Shown: positions 4,749 through 37,925 of the stretch, piece by piece
Numbering within the stretch: position 1 is the first letter of the stretch
How the letters are laid out: every line of letters starts with the position of its first letter
Source: an uncultured Sphingomonadales bacterium
GTDB taxonomy: Bacteria > Pseudomonadota > Alphaproteobacteria > Sphingomonadales > CAKZYD01
DNA: 38,165 nt
NCBI GenBank assembly: GCA_937884085.1
Contig: CAKZYD010000227.1
Coordinates: 1-38,165 of the forward strand
Reading direction: 5' to 3'
The notes under the pieces: model-generated
The model's input: only the letters and a program-made list of their open reading frames with translations
Told to the model about the DNA's origin: nothing
The model's database searches: none
Position numbers and translations under genes: made by a program

Positions 4749-6215
4749 CTATCGAAAAGCGGGCTCGTCAAAACTGCGCAATTTGCGTGAGTGCAGCGAG
4801 CCTTCAAGCGCGTCCTCTCGCAGCAAGTCAAGCGTTCGTAGCCCAATCTGTAAATGCTGGCTCACGCTCTCTTCGTAGAATTTGTCCGCCATGCCGGGCA
4901 GTTTGATTTCGCCATGAAGCGGCCGGTCGGATACGCATAGAAGGGTGCCGTAGGGGACCCGGAAGCGATAGCCATTGGCTGCAATCGTGGCTGATTCCAT
5001 ATCAATGGCAATGGCGCGGGACTGGTTGAACCGCGCGGCGAGCTCATGATAGCGCAGCTCCCAATTGCGGTCGTCCGTGGTGACGACGGTTCCGGTGCGC
5101 AGCCGTTGCTTTAGGGTGTGACCGGGCAAATGCGTGATGTCTGAAACTGCTTCGCTTAAGGCGACTTGGACTTCCGCGAGCGTCGGCAACGGAATGGCTA
5201 CTGGCAGGGCGTCATCGAGCACATGATCATCGCGCAAATAGGCATGGGCCAATACATAATCGCCAAGCCGTTGAGATCCGCGCAAGCCGCCGCAATGGCC
5301 GATCATGATCCACACATGGGCCCGTAAGACCGCCAGATGATCGGTGATGGTTTTGGCATTGGACGGGCCGACGCCGATGTTGACCAGGGTGACGCCCATG
5401 CCATCTTCGCGCATCAGATGATAGGCCGGCATTTGCGGCAGTTTTTTTAACGGCGGCGTGTCTGGCGAGGCATCTTTTCGATGGATGCGACCGCCCGGTT
5501 CTACAAAGGCGCTATATCCGCCCTGTGCCACTTGCGCATGCGCATAGTCAGCAAATTCATCGACATAGCGCTGATAATTGGTGAACAGTACAAAGCTCTG
5601 AAAATGAGCTGGGTCGGTTCCTGTGTAGTGGCGAAGGCGGTGCAGCGAATAGTCAATGCGTGGGCCGGAAAACAAGCTCAGGGGATAGAGCCCATCGCGC
5701 TTTAAGACGGCTTTCCCATCGACGATATCATCGTTGGTGGCCGCCAGATTCGGCATTGTGAAATAGCGCTTAGCCTCCTGACGAAGCTGCGCGTCAAGGC
5801 CGGAGGAGGCCCGTTCAACGGCAAAGCTTAGCGGGATTTCTACATCGCTTTGCCCCACATAAAACCGCGCCTTATGATTGGTTTTCAAAAGCGCCAGTTG
5901 CTCGATCAAATAAGACTTAAATAAATCCGGCGCCGTAATGGTGGTTGCATGAAAGCCTGCATGGGCCACCTTTCCATAGCTTAGCTGGGAAGATGTGGCG
6001 ATGTCTGCGCTGGCGATCTCAATGGCCAGATATGGGTAAACTGCATGACAGCGCCCTGGCAGACTTTTGCTTTCAGAGAAGCGCTCAAAGTCGCCTATGA
6101 TCGTTTGCGTTGCCGCTTCATAGAGCGAGGATAGCCGCTCAAAGGTTGCTTGCGGTGTGTCGCACAGCTGAAGGTCCGAAGCTGGCAGGTCGTCTAGCAT
6201 CTTCCACATGGACAT
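4749..6215 (-). CDS. amn: AMP nucleosidase
   Basis: Amn hydrolyses AMP to adenine and ribose 5-phosphate and is a cytoplasmic adenylate-balancing enzyme. The 488-residue length is nearly the same as the E. coli enzyme (484), and long blocks match it from memory: FTNYQRYVDEF, TLVNIGVGPSNAKTITDHLA, MIGHCGGLR, RLRTGTVVTTDDRNWELRY, AIDMESATIAANGYRFRVPYG and the C-terminal HSRKLRSFDEPAFR. The N-terminal regulatory domain (residues about 1-180) precedes the PNP/UDP-type catalytic domain. It lies 3 bases downstream of the nucleoside transporter on the same strand, so it is almost certainly in one operon with nupC and probably deoC. The free adenine produced would need a phosphoribosyltransferase or adenine deaminase to be reused. 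Confidence 0.96.
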   Translation of the reverse strand: MSMWKMLDDLPASDLQLCDTPQATFERLSSLYEAATQTIIGDFERFSESKSLPGRCHAVYPYLAIEIASADIATSSQLSYGKVAHAGFHATTITAPDLFKSYLIEQLALLKTNHKARFYVGQSDVEIPLSFAVERASSGLDAQLRQEAKRYFTMPNLAATNDDIVDGKAVLKRDGLYPLSLFSGPRIDYSLHRLRHYTGTDPAHFQSFVLFTNYQRYVDEFADYAHAQVAQGGYSAFVEPGGRIHRKDASPDTPPLKKLPQMPAYHLMREDGMGVTLVNIGVGPSNAKTITDHLAVLRAHVWIMIGHCGGLRGSQRLGDYVLAHAYLRDDHVLDDALPVAIPLPTLAEVQVALSEAVSDITHLPGHTLKQRLRTGTVVTTDDRNWELRYHELAARFNQSRAIAIDMESATIAANGYRFRVPYGTLLCVSDRPLHGEIKLPGMADKFYEESVSQHLQIGLRTLDLLREDALEGSLHSRKLRSFDEPAFR

Positions 6216-6218
6216 CTT

Positions 6219-7451
6219 TTAGAGGGAAAGCAGCACACTCGCAATTGCTGCGCTCATCAGGTTGCATAGCGCGCCTGCTAGGACCGCCTTCAGGCCAAGG
6301 CGGCTAATTTCAGCCTTGCGGGCCGGTACCATGGTCCCTAACCCGCCCAGCACAATGGCAATCGCGGCGAGATTGGCAAAGCCGCATAGCGCGAAAATCG
6401 CAATGGTCCGACTGTCTGGGCTAAGCGGCTGTTCCAAGCTGACGAGTTTGGCGAAGGCAATGACCTCGTTCAATATCACCTTCTGGCCAAGCAAATTGCC
6501 GACCACGGTGGCTTCTTCCCAAGGAATACCAATGAGGAAGGCGATGGGCGCAAAGAGCCAGCCTAAAATGGTCTCCAGCGATACCCCATCAAGACCAATA
6601 AGGCCGGTCAGGCCCCCAACGATGCCGTTCAGCATGCTTAGGAGCGCTGTAAAAGCCAGCAGCATAGCGCCCACGGCGACGGCGACGCGGACGCCTGCCA
6701 TGGCCCCATCCGCGGCTGCCTCGAGCACATTTACGGGGCGATTTTCTGCGTCCATCGCTTCAATGGGCAATCGTTCGTCCTCCGAAACCAGATCGCCGGG
6801 CGCATCCGGCACTAAAATTTTGGACATGAGGAGCCCACCGGGCGCTGCCATGAAGGCTGCCGCCACAAGCGATTCGACGGAGTCTGCGCCCAATATGGCA
6901 GCATAGGCGATCAGCGTGGCCCCAGCCGTCGTTGACAGGCCAACGCCCATGATCGTGAAGAGCTGCGCCCGTGTCAGGGTTGAGAGATAGGGCCGGATGA
7001 CCAGTGGGGCTTCCACCATCCCGACAAAGATGTTGGCTGAGGCGCACAGGCTTTCGACCCGGCTAATCCCAATCACCCGCCGCAGCGCTCCGCCAATGGT
7101 GATGACGATGAGCTGCATGATCCGCAGGTGATAGAGCACAGCCACGAGTGAGGAGACGAAGATAATGGCTGGCAGTACTTTTAGGGCCAGGACAAAGCCA
7201 ATACCGCTTTCGTCAGCCAGCGGCCCAAACAGGAAATCGATGCCCACATTGGCATAATCGACAATCGATTGAACGCCGCCGGCTGCCCCCGTGAGCATGG
7301 ATTTGCCAGCCGGAACGACCAGTACCAAGGCGGCAAAGGCCGCCTGAAAGGCAAAAGCCGTCAACACCACCCGGGGGCTGATGTCTTTACGCCGTTCTGA
7401 AAACAAAACCGCGATTGCGACCAGTACCACGATACCAAGGAGGCCAATCAT
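6219..7451 (-). CDS. nupC: Concentrative nucleoside transporter (NupC/CNT family)
   Basis: An inner-membrane, cation-coupled nucleoside importer of 410 residues, normal for bacterial CNTs. The sequence is hydrophobic throughout, with about ten candidate membrane segments. The CNT core motifs are present: GFVLALKVLPAIIFVSSL, ANIFVGMVEAPLVIRPYL (the substrate-binding helix hairpin) and the C-terminal ALCGFANLAAIAIVLGGLG, which matches the family signature CGFAN. It sits between the ALDH16 gene upstream, separated by 168 bases holding two inverted hairpin repeats, and amn, 3 bases downstream. Given the neighbours, purine (deoxy)nucleosides are the likely cargo, but CNT selectivity cannot be read from these motifs alone. 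Confidence 0.93.
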   Translation of the reverse strand: MIGLLGIVVLVAIAVLFSERRKDISPRVVLTAFAFQAAFAALVLVVPAGKSMLTGAAGGVQSIVDYANVGIDFLFGPLADESGIGFVLALKVLPAIIFVSSLVAVLYHLRIMQLIVITIGGALRRVIGISRVESLCASANIFVGMVEAPLVIRPYLSTLTRAQLFTIMGVGLSTTAGATLIAYAAILGADSVESLVAAAFMAAPGGLLMSKILVPDAPGDLVSEDERLPIEAMDAENRPVNVLEAAADGAMAGVRVAVAVGAMLLAFTALLSMLNGIVGGLTGLIGLDGVSLETILGWLFAPIAFLIGIPWEEATVVGNLLGQKVILNEVIAFAKLVSLEQPLSPDSRTIAIFALCGFANLAAIAIVLGGLGTMVPARKAEISRLGLKAVLAGALCNLMSAAIASVLLSL

Positions 7452-7482
7452 GAAAAGGCGCTGGCCTCATCAAACTCATTTT

Positions 7483-7599
7483 CCCTCCCCCGCTCTGGGG
7501 GAGGGCTAGGGAGGGGGTTCTCTAAAGTTCGGTATACCGCAACTAAGGTCCAGGTAGGCGCAGACCCCCTCCTAAATCCTCCCCCAGAACGGGGGAGGA
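7483..7599. repeat. Pair of inverted REP-like hairpin repeats inside the deoC-nupC operon
   Basis: The spacer between the ALDH16 and nupC genes holds two 36-base copies of one element in opposite orientation, at 7483-7518 and 7564-7599. Each copy contains a GC-rich hairpin: CCCTCCCCC with loop GCTCT and GGGGGAGGG in the first, CCTCCCCC with loop AGAAC and GGGGGAGG in the second. Copy two is close to the reverse complement of copy one, with only a few mismatches. This is the layout of bacterial REP/BIME elements. They could act as mRNA-stabilising or attenuating structures between the two genes. No T-run follows either hairpin, so a simple intrinsic terminator is unlikely. Confidence 0.8.
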
Positions 7600-7619
7600 C
7601 TTTGTTTTCTAGAAGCCAA

Positions 7620-9965
7620 CTATTCCCCATAAGGCAACCAGATGTTCTTAACCTCTGACCCAAGCCGCAGCAGTGCATCCCCATCAAATATCGGGTCTGC
7701 CCAATCCAGCGCTTGGCCATGGCTGCACCACATCCGCTTTACATTCATGGCCCCTGCCTGCTCGGCCAACCTGCAGGTGTCTTTGTCCGCGTGAAGCCAT
7801 AGGCCATCGATGGCGTCATGCTCAGCCAGTGTTTTTGTTAAGGCAGCGGTCTCGCCGGTAACGATGTTTAAAACGCCAGCCGGGACATCAGAGGTTTCCA
7901 GCACTTGAATCATGTCCGTCGCCAAGAGCGGATAGCGCTCTGACGGCATTGTAACGACCGTATTCCCAGCGGCAATGGCAGCCGCCGTCATGGTCACAAA
8001 GCTCAAAAGCGGTGCGTCGTCGGGGCAAACCAGCCCCAGCACCCCTTGGGGTTCGTTGACAGCAAGCGTGATGTTCTGTTTTGGCGGGCTGTGGACTGCG
8101 CCATCAAATTTGTCGGCCCAGGCTGCAGCGCTAAAGAGGCGGGCGATTGACAAGCTCACCTCGGCAGTCGCCGAGCCACTTCCCGTAAGCGCTTCAAGCC
8201 GGGTTTCGAAATCACTGGCGCGCTGACTTAGATTTTCCGCCAGGTAGTAGAGGATTTGCGCTTTGGAATGGCCGGTCATGGCGGCCCAGCCCGGCTGGGC
8301 TTTAAGCGCCGCTTCAACGGCATTGCGAATGTCTTTGCGGTTGCCGTCGCCGACCCGGCCAATGATCTCTTCCCCCGCCGATAGAACCGCGCGGGTCCTG
8401 CCCCCATCGGGCCGCGCCTGTTTCCCACCGATGTAGTTTTTGGGTGTTTGATCTATGCTTGGTGGGCTGGTCTCGCGGGACTTGGGTTTGGCCACCTGCG
8501 CAGGCCCTGTCCAAGGCCAGGGCTCTTTCACATAGGCGCGCAGCCCCTCAAGGCCCCCTTCCCGGCCAAAACCGCTTTCTTTATAGCCGCCAAAGCCGAC
8601 GGCGGCGTCAAACTGGTTGGCGGTATTGATCCAGATGACCCCTGCCTTGATGCGCCCTGCCATATCTAGGCAGCGGCCAATGTTTTCTGACCAGATGGAA
8701 GCCGCAAGCCCATAGCGGGTGTTGTTTGCCAGCGTTGCGGCTTCATTGAGCGTGCGAAACGTTTGGATGGTCAATACGGGGCCGAAAACTTCTTCGCGCA
8801 CGGCAATGTTTGATTGGCCCACATTTTCGAGCAGCGTTGGTGCGATATAGCAGCCTTGTTCTGGCACCGAAATGTCCGGTTGCCAGGCCTCTGCGCCCTC
8901 TTGTGACGAAGCTGTAATGAGGCTTTTTACCCGCTCCACCTGCACGGGGTCTGCTAGTGCACCCATGTCGATGCATTTGTCTAAAGGGTCGCCAATGCGG
9001 AAGCTATTGAGCCGGGTTTTCAGCTTTTGGCTTAGGGTGCCCGCCACGCCCTCTTGCACCAAAAGCCGCGAGCCCGCGCAACAGACTTCGCCTTGATTAA
9101 AGAAGATGGCGTCGATCAGGCCTTCGACGGTGCTGTCCAAGTCGGCATCGTCGAACACGATGTATGGGCTTTTGCCGCCAAGCTCGAGGCCAAGCTTCTT
9201 GCCTGAGCCTGCGGTGGCTGCCGCGATGCGCTTGCCAACCTCTGTTGAGCCGGTGAAGGCGATTTTATCGATGCCTGGGTGGTTGACGATCATTTCGCCA
9301 ACGGTTCCATCACCGGTTAGGATGTTTAGGACGCCTTTTGGTAGGCCGACTTCCTGGGCCAGCTGAGCGAAATAAAGGGCTGATAGAGAGGTATATTCCG
9401 CAGGCTTCAGCACCACCGTGTTGCCCGCGGCCAAGGCCGGGGCCACTTTCCAGGCGAGCATTAGGAGCGGGAAATTCCAGGGGATGATTTGCCCGCACAC
9501 GCCAAGCGGCTCAGCGCCTTGCAAGGCCGAAGCCATGATCTGCGCCCAGCCCGCATGATGGGTGAAATGAATATCGATATCGCGTGTCTCGCGGATCGGC
9601 TTGCCATTATCAAGCGTATCGAGCACGGCCAAAAACCGGCTCTCTTTTTGGACAATCCGTGCGAGCGCATAGAGATGCTTGGCGCGTTCATGGCCCGGTA
9701 GTGCCGCCCAGGCTGCCTGTGCTTCGCCTGCTGCCTTCACCGCTTTGTTCACGTCGGCCTTGGTGGCTTGGGTTAAGTTTGCGAGCCGCTTGCCATTGGC
9801 GGGATTGCGGCTTTCGAACAGGGTTTTGCCGAGCTTTGTGAAGCGGCCATTGATGAAATGGCCAAAGCCGCCCCCATGCCCCTCCAGCCATTCATAAGCA
9901 AAGCTGGCGTCTTCCGGCGCAGGGCCATAGTCCATCGTGTCAAGGATATCGGGAATACTGGCCAT
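7620..9965 (-). CDS. ALDH16-type tandem-domain aldehyde dehydrogenase
   Basis: The track ORF begins at 10061 inside deoC. The ATG at 9965, one base beyond the deoC stop, is the better start and gives 781 residues. Domain one (about 20-510) is a complete NAD-dependent aldehyde dehydrogenase, with IIPWNFPLLM, FTGSTEVGKRI, LELGGKSPYIVFDDADLD and the catalytic Cys in FFNQGEVCCAGSR. Domain two (about 535-781) begins again with an entry segment (YIGGKQARPDGG) and a cofactor-fold-like part, but it lacks the Cys motif and the E-L-G-G-K motif, so it is a catalytically silent, shortened copy. This is the architecture of the ALDH16 family. Next to deoC, oxidation of acetaldehyde released from deoxyribose-5-phosphate is the likely job, by inference. 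Confidence 0.88.
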   Translation of the reverse strand: MASIPDILDTMDYGPAPEDASFAYEWLEGHGGGFGHFINGRFTKLGKTLFESRNPANGKRLANLTQATKADVNKAVKAAGEAQAAWAALPGHERAKHLYALARIVQKESRFLAVLDTLDNGKPIRETRDIDIHFTHHAGWAQIMASALQGAEPLGVCGQIIPWNFPLLMLAWKVAPALAAGNTVVLKPAEYTSLSALYFAQLAQEVGLPKGVLNILTGDGTVGEMIVNHPGIDKIAFTGSTEVGKRIAAATAGSGKKLGLELGGKSPYIVFDDADLDSTVEGLIDAIFFNQGEVCCAGSRLLVQEGVAGTLSQKLKTRLNSFRIGDPLDKCIDMGALADPVQVERVKSLITASSQEGAEAWQPDISVPEQGCYIAPTLLENVGQSNIAVREEVFGPVLTIQTFRTLNEAATLANNTRYGLAASIWSENIGRCLDMAGRIKAGVIWINTANQFDAAVGFGGYKESGFGREGGLEGLRAYVKEPWPWTGPAQVAKPKSRETSPPSIDQTPKNYIGGKQARPDGGRTRAVLSAGEEIIGRVGDGNRKDIRNAVEAALKAQPGWAAMTGHSKAQILYYLAENLSQRASDFETRLEALTGSGSATAEVSLSIARLFSAAAWADKFDGAVHSPPKQNITLAVNEPQGVLGLVCPDDAPLLSFVTMTAAAIAAGNTVVTMPSERYPLLATDMIQVLETSDVPAGVLNIVTGETAALTKTLAEHDAIDGLWLHADKDTCRLAEQAGAMNVKRMWCSHGQALDWADPIFDGDALLRLGSEVKNIWLPYGE

Positions 9966-9966
9966 A

Positions 9967-10956
9967 TTACCCCAGGGGATTATGGTCGCCGCGGGCATAG
10001 CGGCCTGTGGCATGGTGAGAGAGCTGGCGTTCGATGTCGGCCAGCAGGCGCGAGGCGCCAAATCGGAAGAGATGCGGGTCGAGCCAGGCCCGGCCGAGCT
10101 CCTCCTTCATCAAAATCAGATAGGCTAAGGCATCTTTTGCCGTGGAAATGCCGCCTGCAGGTTTAAAGCCGATGCGCACCCCCGTCGCCTCATAATAGCT
10201 GCGAATGGCACGGACCATGGTGAGGGAGACTGGTAAGGTGGCATTCACGCTTTCCATGCCCGTTGAGGTTTTGATAAAATCTGCACCGGCCATCATCGCC
10301 ACCAGGCTCGCCTGGCCCACCTTTTTAAGGGACCCAAGCTCCCCAGTTGCTAGAATCGCTTTGATGTGCGCGGGCCCGCAGGCCTGGCGGAAAGCTTTGA
10401 CCTCCTCGTAGAGCGCTGGCCAATCCTCGGTTAAAACATGCCGCCTAGAGATAACGATATCAATCTCCTGCGCGCCCGCTGCCACCGAGGCTTCGATTTC
10501 AGCAAGACGCAGGTTGAACGGGCTGAGGCCAGCTGGAAAGCCTGTTGATACTGCCGCCACCGGAATGCCACTGCCCTCAAGGGCGGTGACAGCCGTTTCG
10601 ACCATGTCATGATAAACACAAACGGCGCCAACCGTCAGTGGCAAATCGGTAATACCAAGCTGGTCTTTCAGCTCGCTGCGCAGCGGCTGGCGTGCTTTGG
10701 CGCAGAGGCGGCGCACCCGGCCTGGCGTGTCATCGCCGGACAAGGTCGTTAGGTCGAGGCAGCTCACGGCTTTGAGGAGCCAAGCGGCCTGCCAGGCTTT
10801 CTTGACGGTTCTGCGCCCCGCCAGACTAGCAATGCGTCGGTCCACCGCTGCGCGGTTCACCCGCACGCTGGCAATAGCATCCAAATCCAAGGCTATGCCT
10901 GGATTGCGCGTCTCTGGCGTAATGGCAAAGAGCGTCACGGTTTCAGCCATTCCCAT
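9967..10956 (-). CDS. deoC: Deoxyribose-phosphate aldolase
   Basis: DeoC splits 2-deoxyribose 5-phosphate into glyceraldehyde 3-phosphate and acetaldehyde. The Schiff-base lysine is in GADFIKTSTG, the second active-site lysine in RIGFKPAGGIST, and the conserved Asp in EIDIVISRR. IKAILATGEL is the matching strand between them. At 329 residues it belongs to the longer, eukaryote-like class (about 320) rather than the 259-residue E. coli form. The start at 10956 has GGGAAAG upstream, and a second Met two codons on is an alternative. It is the first gene of the minus-strand nucleoside operon. It is separated by 76 bases from the divergent phosphorylase gene, a spacer that must hold both promoters. 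Confidence 0.95.
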   Translation of the reverse strand: MGMAETVTLFAITPETRNPGIALDLDAIASVRVNRAAVDRRIASLAGRRTVKKAWQAAWLLKAVSCLDLTTLSGDDTPGRVRRLCAKARQPLRSELKDQLGITDLPLTVGAVCVYHDMVETAVTALEGSGIPVAAVSTGFPAGLSPFNLRLAEIEASVAAGAQEIDIVISRRHVLTEDWPALYEEVKAFRQACGPAHIKAILATGELGSLKKVGQASLVAMMAGADFIKTSTGMESVNATLPVSLTMVRAIRSYYEATGVRIGFKPAGGISTAKDALAYLILMKEELGRAWLDPHLFRFGASRLLADIERQLSHHATGRYARGDHNPLG

Positions 10957-11032
10957 CTTTCCCCAATCTTCCGATATTGAGCCCCCGCGCCAAGCGCGCT
11001 ACCAAAAGAACCGCTAACAGATTGGGTCTTCC

Positions 11033-11872
11033 ATGACAAACCCGCCTTACACCGAAACCATTGCGGCCTGCGCCGAAGCGCTCCTTGACAAGATGGGCAG
11101 TGGCCGACCAAAGACCGCTTTGGTACTTGGCAGTGGGCTCGGCCCTTTTGGTGAGGACATGGATGTGGAAACGGTGGTGCCTTATGGCGACCTGCCCGGT
11201 TTTCCTCAGTCCACGGTGAAAGATCATAAGGGGCGCTTCTTGATCGGCAGGGCAGCAGGCATTCCGCTTATCTGTATGCAAGGCCGTGTTCACCTCTATG
11301 AAGGTTATCCGGCCAGCTTGCTGGCAGTGCCTATTCGAGTGCTCAAAAGCATCGGCGTTGAGACCCTGGTCCTTACCAATGCCGCGGGCTCACTGCGCAC
11401 CGACATGCCGTCTGGCAGCCTGATGATGATTACCGACCATATCAATCTGTCAGGCCAAAACCCGCTCATCGGTCCCAATGCCGACAATTTTGGCCCTCGC
11501 TTTCATGACGTCACCCAGGCCTGGACGCCTCTTTTGCAAGAAGCGTTGCTTGAGGCCGCGCTTGAGGCCGGTGTTACCTTGCACCGCGGCGTTTACTTGC
11601 AAGTGTCTGGCCCCAATTTCGAAACGCCTGCGGAAATCCGCGCGTTTGGGCGGATGGGCGCTGATGCTGTGGGGATGTCGACAGTGCCCGAAGCGTTGGT
11701 GGCAAGCCATGCAGGCATGGCCGTTGCCGGCATCAGCTTGATCACCAACTTGGCTGCAGGCCTATCGCCTGTAGAACTAACCCATACGGAAACCATTGAG
11801 GAAGCCGCCAAGGCCTATGCGCGCATCAAAGCGCTGCTAATGGCGTTTTTCGCTGGGCGGACAAGCGCGTAA
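11033..11872 (+). CDS. punA: Purine-nucleoside phosphorylase, trimeric 6-oxopurine type
   Basis: The enzyme cleaves purine (deoxy)nucleosides with phosphate to base plus (deoxy)ribose 1-phosphate. The 279-residue length and motifs fit the trimeric mammalian-type class: LGSGLGPFG near residue 26, GRVHLYEGY, LTNAAGSLR, ITDHINL, GPNFETPAEIRAF and GADAVGMSTVPE. The Glu of the FET motif and the Asn of SLITN correspond to the residues that recognise 6-oxopurines in the human enzyme. Inosine and guanosine are therefore the expected substrates and adenosine is not. That makes the nearby Add-family deaminase a logical partner. The gene is divergent from deoC. The symbol is given by class; xapA or pnp would also be used by annotators. 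Confidence 0.93.
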   Translation: MTNPPYTETIAACAEALLDKMGSGRPKTALVLGSGLGPFGEDMDVETVVPYGDLPGFPQSTVKDHKGRFLIGRAAGIPLICMQGRVHLYEGYPASLLAVPIRVLKSIGVETLVLTNAAGSLRTDMPSGSLMMITDHINLSGQNPLIGPNADNFGPRFHDVTQAWTPLLQEALLEAALEAGVTLHRGVYLQVSGPNFETPAEIRAFGRMGADAVGMSTVPEALVASHAGMAVAGISLITNLAAGLSPVELTHTETIEEAAKAYARIKALLMAFFAGRTSA

Positions 11873-11913
11873 CGCCCTTTGCCCCCAGATGCTCCTCGCC
11901 CTAGGTGGGCGCT

Positions 11914-13380
11914 ATGAACACACTTCCAAGCGCTCTTATCGCCGGTGAGGCCTATAGCGGGTCTGGCCCGGACTGCACTGTTATCAACCCAGCAACCGAG
12001 GAAACGCTGGCGACCTTCAAGGACGCCGGGGCTGATTTGGTGGACAAGGCGGCAAAGGCAGCGCTTGCGTGTTTTGATAGTGGGGCTTGGTCAAAGGCCA
12101 GCGTCGATCAGCGCCAAGCGACCCTGCGGGAGATTGCAAGCACGTTAGAGGCCAACAATGATGCCATTGCTGACATAGAGGTCTCCAACACGGGGCTCCT
12201 CCTCTCCCAAGTGCAAGGCATGCATGTGAAGCGCGCTGCCTATAACTTCCGTTTTTTCGCGGATTTTATTGGCCAGGTGGAAGATGCTTATTATGATCAA
12301 GCCGAGGATTTTCAAACCACCGTGCGGCGCTTTCCCGTCGGTGTTGCGGGCTTGATTGCGCCTTGGAATGCACCGCTGGCGCTCGGGTCAATGAAAATCG
12401 CGGCGTCCATCGCGTTCGGCAATAGTTGCGTTATTAAGCCGTCCGAAATCGCGCCGCTGTCTTTAGTACGCCTCGTTGAACTCATTGGTGAAACCAGCCT
12501 GCCGAAAGGCGTGGTCAATTTGGTCAACGGCCTTGGCACAAGCACGGGCGGGCCTCTTGTGGACCATCCGGACACCTCCATCATATCTTTCACCGGTGGG
12601 ACAGCGACCGGCCGGGCCATTATGTCTGCCGCTGGAAAACTGCTCAAACCTACGACGATGGAGCTTGGTGGCAAATCCGCTAACATCATCTTTGCCGACG
12701 CAGATTTGGACCAAGCCGTGGATGGCGCGCTGCTTGCAATCTACAGCGCGAATGGCCAGCAATGCTTGGCGGGCTCACGGATTTTGGTGCAGCAGCCCAT
12801 TGCTGAGGCCTTCATGGAAAAATTCGTTTCGCGAGCGAAAAATATGCACGTAGGGGATCCGCGGGCGTTGCAAACGGAGCTCGGCCCCCTCATCTCAGCT
12901 GCGCACCGTGACCGCGTTCTGTCCTATGTGAAAAAAGCCGAAGAAGATGGCGATACCCTGCTTGCTGGTGGAAAAGCGGTCGATGGTCCTGGCTATTACA
13001 TTGAGCCGACGGTCGTCCACGCGCGCAGTAATCACAGCCGCGTCTGCGCTGAAGAGATTTTTGGCCCCTTTGCCAGCATTCTCACCTTTGAGACCGCTGA
13101 AGACGCGTTCGCCATTGCCAACGCCAGCCCTTACGGCTTGGTCAGCTATGTCTGGTCCCAAGACATCTACACCATCAACGCTGCGCAGGATGCCATCAAT
13201 GCAGGCGTGGTCTGGGTCAACACAACCATGATGCGCGAGCTTCGCGCGCCCTTTGGCGGTATCAACGCGTCTGGTGTCGGCGCTGAAGGCGGCCGCGCTT
13301 GCCAAGCCCTTTATACGCGCGAGAAGACGGTAACGATCCCCCGCCAGAAGCTTGATTTACCAAAGTTGGGCATGGGCTAA
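11914..13380 (+). CDS. NAD(P)-dependent aldehyde dehydrogenase
   Basis: A standard single-domain aldehyde dehydrogenase of 488 residues. Visible motifs are LIAPWNAPLALG, FTGGTATGRAI, MELGGKSANIIFADADLD, the catalytic Cys in NGQQCLAGSR, EEIFGPFASIL and the C-terminal APFGGINASG. The track opens at a GTG at 11905. The ATG at 11914 is preferred because AGGTGGG lies just upstream. It follows the phosphorylase gene by 41 bases on the same strand and is probably co-transcribed. The substrate cannot be told from sequence. It is not a close copy of the ALDH16 catalytic domain in the same block, so the two are probably not redundant. Its TAA overlaps the last codon of the convergent, amber-interrupted PhyH reading frame. 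Confidence 0.92.
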   Translation: MNTLPSALIAGEAYSGSGPDCTVINPATEETLATFKDAGADLVDKAAKAALACFDSGAWSKASVDQRQATLREIASTLEANNDAIADIEVSNTGLLLSQVQGMHVKRAAYNFRFFADFIGQVEDAYYDQAEDFQTTVRRFPVGVAGLIAPWNAPLALGSMKIAASIAFGNSCVIKPSEIAPLSLVRLVELIGETSLPKGVVNLVNGLGTSTGGPLVDHPDTSIISFTGGTATGRAIMSAAGKLLKPTTMELGGKSANIIFADADLDQAVDGALLAIYSANGQQCLAGSRILVQQPIAEAFMEKFVSRAKNMHVGDPRALQTELGPLISAAHRDRVLSYVKKAEEDGDTLLAGGKAVDGPGYYIEPTVVHARSNHSRVCAEEIFGPFASILTFETAEDAFAIANASPYGLVSYVWSQDIYTINAAQDAINAGVVWVNTTMMRELRAPFGGINASGVGAEGGRACQALYTREKTVTIPRQKLDLPKLGMG

Positions 13381-14192
13381 AGCACCGGATTGAGCACTGG
13401 GTCGTTGAGGAGCCGCGTTGTTCCATTGGCCTCCTGAACGGCAGCGCCGTCGGGAATGTATTGCAAAATAAGCGCCTAACGGGTGCAGGCCGTCAAATTT
13501 GGGCCGGTGCGATGCGGCGTCAGGGATGAAAAGAAGACTGCATCGCCCGCCATTGCATCGCAGCATAGAGCACCGTCCCGAGCGCGGATACCGGCCACTT
13601 CCAGGCCATAGGGGGCATTCTCATGTGCAAGGGTGCCAAGGGTGTGAAGGCCCGGCATGACCCAGGGGCACCCATTCGCCTCGGTTGCGTCAACCAGGGC
13701 AAGCCACAGCGTCACATAAGCTTGCGGCTCTAGGAAGGTGTATCCATTGTCTTGATGGAAGGGGAATTCCTTGGGTTCACCAGGCTTTTTATAAACGGCT
13801 TGGTCCCAATAGAGCCGCACTTTGGGCCCGATAAGATCTTGCATAAGGGCTTTGATGGCTGCTGACAGGGCAAAGGCTCGCACAGTTTCATCGCGTGCCA
13901 CGAGGTTTCGCGAAAAACTCATCTTATCAGCGGCATAGGTCAGGGTGTAACCGTCGGCCATGGTGAGCACGCTGTCTGGCTCGCTGGCTTCGCAGTGGTC
14001 AATTGCTATCCGCAGCGTTTCCAGCGCCTTTCCTTGGATGAGGCCTGGGACTTTGAGCCATCCATCTCGGTTATACTGATCAATAAGACTCGGCGTCAGG
14101 CTTTCCAGGCCTTCGCGCGGACGCATCGGCCAGCTGAAGTCCGTGTTGAGCGGATGCAGTTTCAGGCTGCTCTGTGCTAGCGCTGCCTCCAT
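13377..14192 (-). pseudogene. PhyH-family dioxygenase gene with an in-frame amber codon near the 3' end
   Basis: The track ORF stops at a TAG at 13476-13478, giving 238 residues. Reading on in the same frame gives 32 more codons, ALILQYIPDGAAVQEANG and onward, ending at a TAG at 13377-13379. This tail looks like the normal C-terminal strand of the phytanoyl-CoA dioxygenase fold. The Fe(II) ligands are present as HQD in FPFHQDNGY and the distal His in LTPHRTGPN. The 2-oxoglutarate-binding Arg expected 11 residues after that His is the last codon before the stop. The gene is therefore truncated within a core strand, misread at one base, or read through. It is divergent from add with a 20-base spacer. 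Substrate unknown. Confidence 0.8.
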
Positions 14193-14212
14193 TCTGATGT
14201 ATATCCTTCCTC

Positions 14213-15214
14213 ATGAACAATCAGACCCTACCCAAAGCCGAACTCCATTGCCATCTTGAAGGCACGGTGGCGCCGGATGTGGCGCTGCGCCTTGCCAAGC
14301 GCCATGGCTATGACATTAGCCGCATTATCGCGCCAGATGGCCGCTATAACTGGCGGACCTTCAATGATTTCCTCGCTGTCTATGATGTGGTCGCCGAAGT
14401 GGTGCGTACGCCCGAGGACTATTATGAGATTTTCCTCGACTATTATGCCCGCGCGGCCGCTCAAGGCCTGATTTATGGCGAGATGTTCATTTCGTCCGAT
14501 CATCCGCAAGCGGTGGGCATAAGCTATGATACGTTCATGGAGACGCTCAATCAGGCCGCTGATGATGTAGAAGCCAAATACGGTGTCCATGTGCGCTTCG
14601 TCCTGCATGTGGTGCGTCATTACGGTATAGAAAAGGCCCGCGCTGTTGCGGATTTAGCGGAAAAAGCGCCCAAACGCCGCGTCACTGGTCTTGGCATCGC
14701 TGGAGATGAGGCCCAATACGCCCATGCCGACTTCACCTTTGCGTTTGAGGCGGGTCGCGGCGCTGGGCTGCAAACGACGGCGCATGCGGGGGAACACGCA
14801 GGCCCCAGCAGTGTGAAGAATGCGGTCATGCACCTGGGTGCTCAGCGCATTGGCCATGGTGTCCGCGCGGCAGAAGATGCTGATTTGCTGACGCTCCTTA
14901 AGGAGCAAAACATCACATTGGAAGTCTGCCCTTCCTCCAATGTCTGCCTTGGTGTGGCGCCAACGATTGAAACCCATCAGTTAAGCGCACTGAGGGCCGC
15001 GGGCGTGCCCGTCTCGCTCAATTCTGATGATCCGCCCTTCTTTTTTACCGATATCGGCAGGGAGTATGCGCTCGCCCAGCAGCATCATGGCTGCACAGAC
15101 GCCGACCTCATTGATATCACCCGGACCGCTCTGGCCGCCGCCTTTTGCGATGATGCCACACGCCAGTCATGCTTGGCCCATATCGATGCTTGGGAGAAGG
15201 AGCATCTGGCGTGA
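14213..15214 (+). CDS. add: Adenosine deaminase family protein
   Basis: A zinc-dependent deaminase of 333 residues that converts adenosine, or possibly adenine, to the 6-oxo product. Metal and catalytic motifs are complete: KAELHCHLEGT near residue 9, HAGEHAGPSS, RIGHGVRA, LEVCPSSNV and SLNSDDPPFF. The segment GIAGDEAQYA resembles the LAGDE motif of true adenosine deaminases. HLEGT and the NSDDP form are also seen in adenine deaminases of the same family, so specificity is not settled by motif reading. Adenosine fits the neighbouring 6-oxopurine phosphorylase, and adenine would fit AMP nucleosidase. Its stop overlaps the GTG of the LOG-family gene. Confidence 0.88.
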   Translation: MNNQTLPKAELHCHLEGTVAPDVALRLAKRHGYDISRIIAPDGRYNWRTFNDFLAVYDVVAEVVRTPEDYYEIFLDYYARAAAQGLIYGEMFISSDHPQAVGISYDTFMETLNQAADDVEAKYGVHVRFVLHVVRHYGIEKARAVADLAEKAPKRRVTGLGIAGDEAQYAHADFTFAFEAGRGAGLQTTAHAGEHAGPSSVKNAVMHLGAQRIGHGVRAAEDADLLTLLKEQNITLEVCPSSNVCLGVAPTIETHQLSALRAAGVPVSLNSDDPPFFFTDIGREYALAQQHHGCTDADLIDITRTALAAAFCDDATRQSCLAHIDAWEKEHLA

Positions 15215-15792
15215 AGAGACTCTGTGTGTTTTGCGGGTCCTCGTCCGGCAAGGACCCCATCCATGTGGAGGCTGGCCGGCAAGTGGGCGCGGCGCTGGCC
15301 AAGCGCGGCATTTCCGTCGTCTATGGCGGTGCGTCCATCGGTGTGATGGGCGCGGTTGCCGATGGCGCCATGCAAGCCGGCGGCGAGGTCATCGGCATCA
15401 TCCCAAAAGCCATTACTGAATTTGAAGTGGCCCACGACCATCTCACGGAGCTGCACGTGGTCGACACCATGCATGAACGCAAAGCCATGATGGCGGATTT
15501 ATCAGATGCCTTTATCGCTTTGCCCGGCGGTATCGGCACCATGGAAGAGCTGTTCGAGGTTTGGACTTGGGGCCAGCTGGGCTATCACAACAAGCCCTTT
15601 GGCCTTCTAGATGTGGCGGGCTATTGGACGCTCTTAGAGGACTTTCTAGACGCTATGGTCGAAAAGGGCTTTCTGCGCCCCATGCACCGCGCCATGGTGT
15701 TTAATGAAACCAGCCTGGACGTCCTTTTAGAGCGCTTTGAAAGCTACTGCCCGCCCAGCCGAGACAAGTGGGTGGATGCGCGCGGGCTTTAG
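15211..15792 (+). CDS. LOG-family nucleoside 5'-monophosphate phosphoribohydrolase
   Basis: LOG-family proteins hydrolyse AMP or cytokinin nucleotides to free base plus ribose 5-phosphate. The signatures are FCGSSSGKDP at the N-terminus, YGGASIGVMG, MHERKAMM and the substrate-binding PGGIGTMEE. The track begins at 15169 in add coding sequence. The GTG at 15211 is preferred because the protein then opens with VKRLCVFCGSS as its relatives do, and AAGGAG sits 8-9 bases upstream. That gives 193 residues, normal for the family. The GTGA overlap with the add stop implies translational coupling. The PGGxGTxxE motif is intact, so it should be active. It was formerly annotated as lysine decarboxylase, which is wrong for this family. 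Confidence 0.9.
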   Translation: MKRLCVFCGSSSGKDPIHVEAGRQVGAALAKRGISVVYGGASIGVMGAVADGAMQAGGEVIGIIPKAITEFEVAHDHLTELHVVDTMHERKAMMADLSDAFIALPGGIGTMEELFEVWTWGQLGYHNKPFGLLDVAGYWTLLEDFLDAMVEKGFLRPMHRAMVFNETSLDVLLERFESYCPPSRDKWVDARGL

Positions 15793-15849: not shown

Positions 15850-16101
15850 ATGGACCCTGTCAATATTCACGCTGCCAAAACCAATTTGTCTCGCCTCGTG
15901 GAGGCGGCTGAGCGGGGTGAAGAGGTGGTCATCGCGCGCGCAGGCAAACCGGTTGTGCGCATGGTCCGCTATGCGGATGACCCACCAAAGCGCCGTCGGC
16001 TAGGTATTTTGGAAGGCAAAGTGCCGCCGTTGCCTGATGATTATGATGATCCTTTGCCCGATGATGTTTTGGCGTCTTTTTACGGTGGAGAGCTGCCTTA
16101 A
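15850..16101 (+). CDS. Phd/YefM-family antitoxin
   Basis: An 83-residue antitoxin. The N-terminal half, NIHAAKTNLSRLVEAAERGE followed by VVIARAGKPVVRMV, is the Phd/YefM DNA-binding fold. The acidic, proline-rich C-terminal part (LPDDYDDPLPDD) is the expected toxin-neutralising tail, unstructured until bound. It is directly followed by the PIN toxin gene with no spacer (TAA then TTG), so translation is coupled. Self-repression through the upstream palindromes is inferred. AAGGAGC upstream of the ATG is a strong ribosome binding site. Confidence 0.92.
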   Translation: MDPVNIHAAKTNLSRLVEAAERGEEVVIARAGKPVVRMVRYADDPPKRRRLGILEGKVPPLPDDYDDPLPDDVLASFYGGELP

Positions 16102-16536
16102 TTGAAGATCTTGCTGGATACGAATGTTCTTCTCTGGGCGCTCGCTAGTCCCGACCGGCTTCAACCTGGCGTTCGGCATGACCTGGAAAATGCTGAGAAT
16201 ACGATCCTGTTCAGCGCGGCGAGTATTTGGGAAATTGCCATTAAATCCGGACTAGGGCGGCCCGATTTCGCTTATGAGCCAATCGAAATTCTCAAAGCAG
16301 CAGAAGCATCCAACTTTGAAGAAATCTTGATCACAAGCAGGATAGCTGCTCGGGTTAAGGGTATGACTCTAAACCATTCTGATCCATTTGATCGATTGAT
16401 CCTAGCGCAGGCAGAGGCAGCAGAGTCGTGGCTATATACCAGCGATAAAAAGCTATGGGACGTATCGCCTATCGTTAAGCCGATAAGGCGGGCTGGGCGA
16501 TCAGATCCCAGCTTACCGGGGTCCCCCGCTGAATAG
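16102..16536 (+). CDS. vapC: VapC-family PIN-domain toxin ribonuclease
   Basis: A PIN-domain ribonuclease of 144 residues starting at a TTG immediately after the antitoxin stop. Catalytic acidic residues are in place: LLDTNVLLWALA at the start, SIWEIAIKSGLG with the conserved Glu, HSDPFDRLILAQA and YTSDKKLW. VapC toxins cleave specific RNAs such as tRNA when freed from their antitoxin. The family normally ends soon after the last motif. Here the frame runs on for a tail, GRSDPSLPGSPAE, that lies antisense to the end of pseI, overlapping it by 62 bases. The tail may be a run-on acquired when the module was placed here. A weak start codon keeps toxin lower than antitoxin, a usual arrangement. 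Confidence 0.9.
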   Translation: MKILLDTNVLLWALASPDRLQPGVRHDLENAENTILFSAASIWEIAIKSGLGRPDFAYEPIEILKAAEASNFEEILITSRIAARVKGMTLNHSDPFDRLILAQAEAAESWLYTSDKKLWDVSPIVKPIRRAGRSDPSLPGSPAE

Positions 16537-35632: not shown

Positions 35633-36140
35633 CCGGCCCTTCGGCCCCTTTGTGCAGACCGCCTATTTGGTCTCTGACCTGAAGGCGGCGGCGCAGCGCT
35701 GGGCGGAGGACTTTGGGGCAGGCCCCTTCTTTACGCTGGAAGGCATAAAGCCGGAGATGCTGGGCGGGGGTGATAACGCTGCCTCGCTGGACCACAGCTC
35801 TGCCTATGGCCAGCTCGGCGATGAGATGATTGAGCTGGTAGTCCCTGCCAATGGCAGGACATCGATTTTCGTTTGGCCGCTGGAGGCCCTGCATCATCGC
35901 GCGGTCTTCGCTACGGATTATGAGGACGCGCTCGCCTGGTTTGAAGCCAAAGGCATGGCCCATCGGGCCAGTGCGTCCGTCAATGGCATGCCCTTCGCCT
36001 TTGTCGACGCGACGCATCAGCTGGGTCACTTTGTTGAGGTCTATCCTCAGTCAGACGCCCTGGAGGGCTTTTACGCTATGGTCCGCGGTGCTGCAGACGG
36101 CTGGGATGGCGGTGACCCTGTGCGGCCCATCACCCTTTAG
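35613..36140 (+). CDS. VOC-superfamily (glyoxalase-like) protein
   Basis: A 175-residue protein with a glyoxalase-like beta-alpha-beta fold: FVQTAYLVSDLKAAAQRWAE at the start is the typical first module, and IELVVPANGRTS, LHHRAVFATDYEDALAWFEA and LGHFVEVYP follow. The His in LHHRA and Glu in HFVEVY are candidate metal ligands. The track ORF begins at 35457 in SDR sequence. The ATG at 35613, or a TTG four codons later, is the realistic start. It is coupled to the SDR gene by overlap, so a shared substrate is likely but not identifiable. The stop overlaps that of the convergent PhyH gene by a few bases. Confidence 0.83.
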   Translation: MPKALNNRPFGPFVQTAYLVSDLKAAAQRWAEDFGAGPFFTLEGIKPEMLGGGDNAASLDHSSAYGQLGDEMIELVVPANGRTSIFVWPLEALHHRAVFATDYEDALAWFEAKGMAHRASASVNGMPFAFVDATHQLGHFVEVYPQSDALEGFYAMVRGAADGWDGGDPVRPITL

Positions 36141-36994
36141 GCCGCCCGGCGCCAGGTGACAGGAAAGCTATCTTGGGGGAGCGGCTCGCCGACAACAGGC
36201 CGCTTGCCGCCCTCTTTGAGCGCTAAATCCAGAGATAGTGGCGTAGGTGCATAGCGAATGTCGTCGCCAATCCAGCGGCTGGAAAAGGCCAGGCGCCGCC
36301 CTTTTTGCGGGCTTTTGCGCGGGGCTGAGCCGTGAATGGTTTTGGGGTGAATAACCAACACATCGCCCGCTTTAGCAGGCCAGCTTTGGATGGGTGCATC
36401 CGGCGCTGTCACACGGGCTTGCAGCTCTGTCCAGGGATGAAACTCCGGCGGGCGCTCCACGTCTTGCGGTGAGAAGGTTGAATGGTAGCGATGCGGATCT
36501 TTGTTGGAGCCGCGCAGCGTTACCAGTGGCGCATTGTCTTCACCCACATCCGTCAAGGCCATCCACAGCGATGCGGAGTGGACGCCCGTGAGCGGATAGG
36601 TGCATTCATCATTGTGCCAGGGCGTCGCTGTGTCGGGCGTGTTGCCGGCTTTTGCGAAGGTACCATCCAGCCAATAGCGCAGCGTATCGGCCTCCATGAC
36701 ATCGGCCAGAATTTGTGCAGCCGGGCTGTCTTGAATCCACGTCTGGATTTCCGCGCTATAGGCCGCCACATGCAGAATGCGATAGTTGCCTTCTTTGCCG
36801 TCGATAAAGAATGGGGCTTGGCAGCTCTCTTCGGTGACTTTTTCAGGCTGTTTACCGGCTTCATAGGTCTCGATAATCCGGTCAATGCCGCGAGTGACCA
36901 TGTCGATCCAATGCTGGTCAAAGACCCCTTCGATCTTCACGCAGCCGTCCTCGTGATATTGCTGTCGATGCGCGTCCGTTACGAATGCGGCCAT
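36137..36994 (-). CDS. Phytanoyl-CoA dioxygenase (PhyH) family protein
   Basis: An Fe(II)/2-oxoglutarate-dependent oxygenase of 285 residues. The metal ligands are HND in PWHNDECTYPL and the distal His in IHPKTIHGSAPRKSP; GRRLAFSSRWIGDD supplies the Arg that binds 2-oxoglutarate. An N-terminal stretch (YHEDGCVKIEGVFDQHWI) is the usual opening helix-strand. The track starts at 37051, but the ATG at 36994 has AGGAGG 9 bases upstream and follows the hydrolase stop by 4 bases. The pair is clearly one operon. Substrate unknown. Unlike the first PhyH gene of the window at 13377, this one is intact. Confidence 0.9.
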   Translation of the reverse strand: MAAFVTDAHRQQYHEDGCVKIEGVFDQHWIDMVTRGIDRIIETYEAGKQPEKVTEESCQAPFFIDGKEGNYRILHVAAYSAEIQTWIQDSPAAQILADVMEADTLRYWLDGTFAKAGNTPDTATPWHNDECTYPLTGVHSASLWMALTDVGEDNAPLVTLRGSNKDPHRYHSTFSPQDVERPPEFHPWTELQARVTAPDAPIQSWPAKAGDVLVIHPKTIHGSAPRKSPQKGRRLAFSSRWIGDDIRYAPTPLSLDLALKEGGKRPVVGEPLPQDSFPVTWRRAA

Positions 36995-36998
36995 CGCT

Positions 36999-37925
36999 CT
37001 AGCCCTCCTGCTCTTCATATTGGTTGAGTGCTGCCTTTGGTTCCAAGTCATCCGTTTTGCTCAGCCAATCATGGGGTGTGCCTTCAAGATAGGCGGAGAC
37101 GATATCTGCATAAGCCTCCCCGCCGTCAGGCCGGTGGCAGGGATGGGTGCCCTCAAACACATGGCCTCGCACGTCTTTAAGCGCCCGCACTGTCGTGGGG
37201 AATTGGCTGCGCAGCGTGTCACTATCTGCTGTTAGCGCCAGCACCGGCTGTTTGATGTCTGGGAGGCGGTCCAAAGCATTATAATTGCCGAAGGCGGTGC
37301 GCATAGGTCCGCCCGCCATGCCGGTCTGCATAAAATCAATGGCCGCTTGATGCAGCGTGGCGTCCCAAGCGCCATCAAAAGCCAATGTGGGCGCCCAGAC
37401 TTTCCAAAGATTGTGCGTCCAAGACCAAGCGTGGGTCACAGGCGCCCCCGCTTCTTCATAGGCAGGCGGCTCGAAGGAAAACTTGCTAATCATGTCGAGG
37501 CGAGTCTCGACAGTCCAATCACTCGCAATGCCGTCGAGAATCACATCCACAACGATATCAGGCGCGGCCATGGCCGTTTCCATGGCGACCTCCCCGCCCA
37601 TATGGCCCCCGTGGATGGCTATGTTGCTCAGCCCAAGATCCCGCAGGCCTTGGGCTAAGGCGGCCCCATGGCGGACCTGCGTCCACGTGGTTGGATCTGG
37701 ATGGGCCGAGGTGCCAAAGCCAAACATATCCGGCGCAAGAACATCATAGCCGCGCGCGCCAAGCGCGTGGGCCACATGGGCGAGTTGCGCGCCAGAGCCT
37801 GGCGTCCAATGAAGCAGAACGATAGGCCGTCCGGCAGGGTCGCCGAAGCGCCTGGTGTGGAGCTGGCCTTCTGGCGTGTCTAAGTAGAAGCGCTTGGAGG
37901 GATAGAGCTGGGCGATGAGGAGCAT
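36999..37925 (-). CDS. Alpha/beta hydrolase with a non-standard nucleophile elbow
   Basis: A 308-residue alpha/beta-hydrolase fold protein. The oxyanion-loop region is IVLLHWTPGSGAQ, then GYDVLAPDMFGFGTS. Where the family has G-x-Ser-x-G, the elbow here reads IHGGHMGGEVA, with His at the expected nucleophile position. The acid is likely the Asp in LALTADSDTL and the base the His in FEGTHPCHRPDG. The protein may have lost hydrolysis, or belong to a subgroup working by another mechanism. It lies first in a two-gene operon with the PhyH oxygenase, and a MFS transporter gene ends 85 bases upstream on the same strand. Confidence 0.85.
   Translation of the reverse strand: MLLIAQLYPSKRFYLDTPEGQLHTRRFGDPAGRPIVLLHWTPGSGAQLAHVAHALGARGYDVLAPDMFGFGTSAHPDPTTWTQVRHGAALAQGLRDLGLSNIAIHGGHMGGEVAMETAMAAPDIVVDVILDGIASDWTVETRLDMISKFSFEPPAYEEAGAPVTHAWSWTHNLWKVWAPTLAFDGAWDATLHQAAIDFMQTGMAGGPMRTAFGNYNALDRLPDIKQPVLALTADSDTLRSQFPTTVRALKDVRGHVFEGTHPCHRPDGGEAYADIVSAYLEGTPHDWLSKTDDLEPKAALNQYEEQEG

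What the first reader, a model, noticed from the sequence alone, without database searches (positions are those of the whole stretch)
13377..13478. In-frame amber codon splits a PhyH dioxygenase one residue after its 2-oxoglutarate arginine
Seen directly: the minus-strand frame continues through TAG at 13476-13478 for 32 sense codons (ALILQYIPDGAAV...) to a second TAG that overlaps the stop of the neighbouring ALDH. The tail reads like the normal family C-terminus. By analogy with human PhyH, where the metal His and the 2-oxoglutarate Arg are 11 residues apart, that Arg is the last codon before the TAG. Options are a recent nonsense mutation, a base error, or programmed readthrough yielding short and long forms. 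A single substitution from a Lys (AAG) or Gln (CAG) codon would explain it.
Basis: partly seen in the sequence, partly recalled or inferred. Interest (0 to 1): 0.68.

Follow-up and report, generated by a model that had tools for sequence, protein, structure and literature searches.

The report
Stray stop codon in metagenome dioxygenase
A stop codon interrupts an otherwise normal dioxygenase gene in a genome assembled from a metagenome, and because the same assembly has unexpected stops of all three kinds in other genes, even an essential one, it is most likely a base error or an ordinary knockout mutation rather than special decoding.

Summary
The amber codon is there: TAG at 13476-13478 (-), directly after the 2-oxoglutarate Arg (R238), then 32 sense codons to TAG 13377-13379. 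The tail is the genuine family C-terminus. All 80 nearest homologues read through this point (Lys in 76, Arg in 4) with at least 32 further codons. The tail is beta-strand VIII of the catalytic barrel, so the 238-aa form should be dead.

Nothing supports programmed readthrough. TAG is an ordinary stop here (189 of 579 ORFs), RF1 is present, no CUA-anticodon tRNA, PylS or SelB was found, and local RNA folding is unremarkable.

The contig belongs to a fragmented draft genome (433 contigs, 90% complete) with excess in-frame stops of every type: 3 of 45 members of three protein families against 0 of 239 in same-order relatives. Others lie in a peptidase, DsbD and the single-copy essential GTPase gene der. 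An ortholog scan of part of the genome found no frameshifts. That pattern favours substitution errors in the consensus, with a recent nonsense mutation second; single-genome data cannot separate them.

By-product: the gene lies in a nucleoside-salvage cluster, and related dioxygenases were recently shown to demethylate 2'-O-methyl nucleosides, which gives a testable function for intact relatives.

The parts
13476..14192 (-). Annotatable ORF: PhyH-family Fe(II)/2-oxoglutarate dioxygenase, 238 aa, HxD (H146, D148), distal H227 and 2OG Arg R238 all present
13476..13478 (-). In-frame TAG (codon 239), where homologues have Lys (76/80) or Arg (4/80)
13380..13475 (-). 32 in-frame codons encoding the family C-terminus: strand VIII of the barrel (model residues 238-247) and two short strands
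13377..13379 (-). Terminal TAG of the full-length frame
14213..15214 (+). Adenosine deaminase gene, divergent from the dioxygenase; the neighbouring position is kept in 6 of the 80 homologous loci
11905..13380 (+). Aldehyde dehydrogenase gene, convergent, its TAA overlapping the terminal TAG

Best explanation
The TAG is most likely a single-base consensus error in a fragmented metagenome-assembled genome, hitting what is in the real organism an intact PhyH-family dioxygenase gene with a Lys (probably AAG) codon at position 239. If translated as assembled, the product would lack strand VIII of the double-stranded beta-helix and be inactive. No decoding mechanism is needed. Shown: the codon, the intact tail, the lack of recoding machinery in the searches made, and the genome-wide excess of in-frame stops. 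Inferred: that the excess comes from errors rather than real mutations.
For: The window is contig C227 of a 433-contig draft genome, 90.4% complete. Whole-genome family surveys find in-frame stops in 3 of 45 members here (2 TAA, 1 TGA) and in 0 of 239 in same-order relatives (one-sided Fisher p = 0.004). Against 794 kb of an Iodidimonas-like relative, 122 own genes have two in-frame stops (this TAG and one in der) and no frameshifts; the reciprocal test gives none of either. der (EngA) is single-copy here and essential in bacteria generally (my knowledge); it carries TAG inside a short stretch that departs from homologues. Other split genes in the 1.1 Mb sampled: M28 peptidase (TAG), DsbD and an AMP-binding enzyme (TGA). 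The rest of the protein looks under normal constraint: it departs from 1 of 54 near-invariant columns, in the range of its relatives.
Against: No reads or coverage are available, so error is inferred. A real recent nonsense mutation would look the same at this locus. The family survey is small (3 events), and the genome has no same-family relative for comparison.
Confidence: 0.6

Rival explanations
1. A genuine, recent nonsense mutation (Lys AAG to TAG) has made a young pseudogene in this strain or population; the tail is still intact because there has been no time to decay.
For: One substitution from the commonest homologous codon; only one lesion; conserved tail and catalytic residues. The gene is probably dispensable: 72 of 151 same-order genomes have no match to it at E<=0.001.
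Against: Stops of all types are in excess elsewhere, including in the essential der gene, without frameshifts in the genes tested, which mutation and decay would not favour.
Confidence: 0.34
2. Programmed or leaky amber readthrough gives a short and a full-length form.
For: The tail is conserved and in frame; a paper reports in-frame stops in bacterial genes with dN/dS below 1 (PMC7918605).
Against: No homologue shares the stop. No CUA tRNA among 39 tRNA matches, though the set is incomplete; no PylS. RNA folding around the site is no stronger than shuffles, z = -0.30. The short form lacks a core strand. The same paper assumes most such cases have no functional recoding.
Confidence: 0.03
3. 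The 238-residue truncated enzyme is itself functional.
For: All metal ligands and the 2OG Arg are still encoded.
Against: In the model (mean pLDDT 92.9) the strand 238-247 starts at the Arg and is lost, with all residues after it. The family is described as having eight core strands including VIII, and a docking contact of PHYHD1 (W277) lies beyond the Arg (PMC12709175). None of 80 homologues ends here.
Confidence: 0.02
4. TAG is reassigned to an amino acid in this organism.
For: Two in-frame TAGs in ortholog alignments and a third in an M28 peptidase.
Against: TAG ends 189 of 579 predicted genes. RF1 is present, apparently split over contigs C74 and C93. The residues replaced differ (Lys here, Asp in der), and TAA and TGA also occur inside genes.
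Confidence: 0.01

Closest known systems
PhyH family (Pfam PF05721) Fe(II)/2-oxoglutarate dioxygenases, incl. human PHYH (2A1X) and PHYHD1 (2OPW, 3OBZ)
   Same: HxD...H and 2OG Arg, 11-residue His-Arg spacing, double-stranded beta-helix in the model
   Different: Frame interrupted by TAG before strand VIII; about 19-21% identical to the human structures over the fold alignment
[quoted passage not shown]
   Same: Same Pfam family; Tyr (Y151) at the place corresponding to PHYHD1 F161, as the paper describes for bacterial enzymes; gene lies among nucleoside-salvage genes
   Different: FJS sequence could not be obtained here, so direct relatedness was not tested; no activity data
Nonsense codons in bacterial genes: pseudogenes, errors and putative readthrough (PMC7918605)
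   Same: Single in-frame stop in an otherwise conserved gene
   Different: Here the stop is not shared with any relative, so the paper's criterion of orthologous stops in two or more species is not met

Membership tests
PhyH (PF05721) dioxygenase | Profile match above the gathering score | tested here: met
   91.4 bits (238 aa), 93 bits read through; cut-off 22
PhyH (PF05721) dioxygenase | HxD...H iron triad and 2OG Arg | tested here: met
   H146, D148, H227, R238 invariant in the alignment
PhyH (PF05721) dioxygenase | Complete eight-strand DSBH incl. strand VIII in the product as encoded | tested here: not met
   Strand 238-247 lies after the TAG; met only if read through
Programmed stop-codon readthrough | Stop conserved in orthologs | tested here: not met
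   0 of 80 homologues have a stop at this position
Programmed stop-codon readthrough | Cognate suppressor tRNA or stimulatory structure | tested here: not met
   No CUA tRNA among those found in a 90%-complete genome; RNA fold z = -0.30
Pyrrolysine recoding | PylS in the genome | tested here: not met
   No match to TIGR02367
TAG reassignment | TAG not used as terminator, RF1 lost | tested here: not met
   189/579 predicted genes end in TAG; prfA match 465.7 bits
2'-O-methyl-nucleoside demethylase | Activity on 2'-O-methyl nucleosides | not testable with these tools
   Only context and family resemblance

The most novel reading that the evidence does not exclude
The amber codon is real in the population and is read through often enough to make some full-length dioxygenase, so nucleoside demethylation would be tuned by translation termination.
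Probability: 0.03. Interest if true: 0.5.

Novelty: already known. Interest (0 to 1): 0.12.

Why it matters
As a stop-codon finding it matters little: it is an example of how base errors or young pseudogenes in draft metagenome genomes imitate recoding. The general lesson is to check the in-frame-stop rate of the whole assembly before proposing readthrough. The side result is more useful: a dioxygenase family sitting in nucleoside-salvage loci of alphaproteobacteria is a testable candidate for 2'-O-methyl-nucleoside demethylation.

Tried and rejected
Viral contigs gave no match. Plasmids gave only distant PhyH proteins, best 32% identity. No second copy of the locus exists in the genome, so no haplotype comparison was possible. 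Selenocysteine was checked because of TGA at a DsbD cysteine: no tRNA-Sec or SelB above cut-off. A first ORF-based ortholog scan was swamped by antisense shadow ORFs and was redone with codon-usage-selected genes. An odd tRNA in L146 (ARAGORN anticodon 'tt') has a 6-nt anticodon loop GTTTAA and is not CUA. Several stop-extension candidates were simply the next gene in the same frame.

Full report
OBSERVATION. The minus-strand ORF 14192-13476 encodes 238 residues ending PHRTGPNLTACTR and stops at TAG 13476-13478; the frame then continues for 32 codons to TAG 13377-13379, which overlaps the TAA of the convergent ALDH gene. Pfam PhyH covers the ORF (91.4 bits) and its profile is only completed by reading through.

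IS THE TAIL REAL? Eighty homologous loci from public genomes (about 41-52% identity) all read on past this point. The residue at the TAG column is Lys in 76 and Arg in 4, and the shortest continuation is 32 codons. The first 11 tail residues are 68% identical to the homologues, against 47% for the body. H227 and R238 are invariant, 11 residues apart, and R238 aligns with the corresponding Arg of solved PhyH enzymes. The read-through sequence departs from only 1 of 54 near-invariant columns, as its relatives do. So the gene was under normal constraint until very recently, or still is.

WHAT TRUNCATION WOULD DO. A confident AlphaFold2 model of the read-through protein (mean pLDDT 92.9) has a ten-residue strand at 238-247, beginning at the 2OG Arg. 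I take this as strand VIII of the double-stranded beta-helix (assigned by position after the distal His and the Arg, not by a strand-by-strand superposition); the best fold matches are SnoN, MysH, PHYHD1 and PHYH. The 238-residue product would lack this core strand and everything after it; in PHYHD1 a docking contact to the nucleoside ribose (W277) lies in that region (PMC12709175). Loss of activity is an inference, but a strong one.

RECODING. TAG terminates 189 of 579 predicted genes in 1.1 Mb of the genome. RF1 is present: a 465.7-bit match on C74 covers residues 88-359 and a weak match at the edge of C93 covers 9-79, which looks like a gene split by a contig break (the contig ends were not inspected). 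None of 39 tRNA matches has a CUA anticodon, but the set is incomplete (no Trp tRNA was found), so this is supportive and not conclusive. PylS is absent, and SelB and tRNA-Sec are below cut-off. RNA folding across the site is ordinary (z = -0.30).

THE ASSEMBLY. The window is contig C227 of a draft genome with 433 contigs and 90.4% completeness, in a family with no other genome held. Is this stop unusual within that assembly? Three large families were surveyed over the whole genome with 8-10 same-order relatives as controls: AMP-binding (2 of 23 with TAA inside), aldehyde dehydrogenase (1 of 17 with TGA), ACR transporters (0 of 5). That is 3 of 45 here against 0 of 239 in relatives (Fisher p = 0.004). 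A reciprocal ortholog test with 794 kb of an Iodidimonas-like relative gave two in-frame stops and no frameshifts in 122 genes here, and none in the other direction. The second stop is in der, a single-copy GTPase gene that is essential in bacteria as far as known, where a short stretch around the TAG also departs from homologues. An M28 peptidase (TAG), DsbD (TGA) and one more AMP-binding enzyme (TGA) are interrupted too. All three stops, different residues replaced, no frameshifts seen: this is what substitution errors in a thin consensus would give. Real decay would also bring frameshifts and spare der. I therefore put base error at about 0.6 and real nonsense mutation at about 0.34; only reads can decide.

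SURROUNDINGS AND FUNCTION OF THE INTACT GENE. Neighbours are AMP nucleosidase-like (4749-6215), a NupC-type nucleoside transporter (6219-7451), aldehyde dehydrogenase (7620-10061), deoxyribose-phosphate aldolase (9967-10956), purine nucleoside phosphorylase (11033-11872), aldehyde dehydrogenase (11905-13380), adenosine deaminase (14213-15214) and a LOG-like protein (15169-15792). Adenosine deaminase lies beside the homologue in six other loci; Iodidimonas-like L042 also has XdhC and an amidohydrolase, and L054 a nucleoside hydrolase. Many other homologues lie among unrelated genes. A 2025 paper shows that PhyH-family enzymes, including human PHYHD1, a soil bacterial FJS and a Sphingomonas enzyme, demethylate free 2'-O-methyl nucleosides (PMC12709175). 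That makes 2'-O-methyl-nucleoside demethylation my preferred guess for the intact enzyme (about 0.4; inference from context and family only).

VERDICT. Observation confirmed; explanation ordinary. Interest low.

Noticed in passing
4749-15792: Nucleoside-salvage cluster around the PhyH gene (AMP nucleosidase-like, NupC, deoC, PNP, two ALDHs, adenosine deaminase, LOG-like); the adenosine deaminase neighbour recurs in L035, L042, L043, L045, L048, L055. Suggests a 2'-O-methyl-nucleoside demethylase.
   Followed up: partly
L190:757-3030 (-), stop at 1012-1014: DsbD-like gene with TGA where the first Cys of the thioredoxin CxxC would be expected (TADW-TGA-ITFKANE); the second Cys position reads Phe. 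No SelB or tRNA-Sec above cut-off in the genome.
   Followed up: partly
L173:9610-10905 (-), TAG at 10113: Single-copy der (EngA) gene interrupted by TAG inside a short stretch that departs from homologues (L*PPLGALQHFVRRAAL); looks like an assembly error.
   Followed up: yes
L234:60-1544 (+): M28 peptidase with in-frame TAG after EEVGLWGS.
   Followed up: partly
L242:13095-14540 (+): AMP-binding enzyme with in-frame TGA before GGENVYP, between the main and C-terminal domains.
   Followed up: partly
L221:6850-7857 (-): AMP-binding enzyme with an in-frame TAA (TTC TAA GAA) and otherwise intact domain.
   Followed up: partly
36137-37051 (-): Second PhyH-family protein in the same window (304 aa, 91.6 bits), intact.
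   Followed up: no
15850-16536 (+): Likely toxin-antitoxin pair: 83-aa antitoxin-like ORF followed by a PIN-domain protein.
   Followed up: no
L146:1435-1578 (-): Two odd adjacent tRNA-like genes; one has a six-base anticodon loop (GTTTAA) and mismatched acceptor stem.
   Followed up: partly
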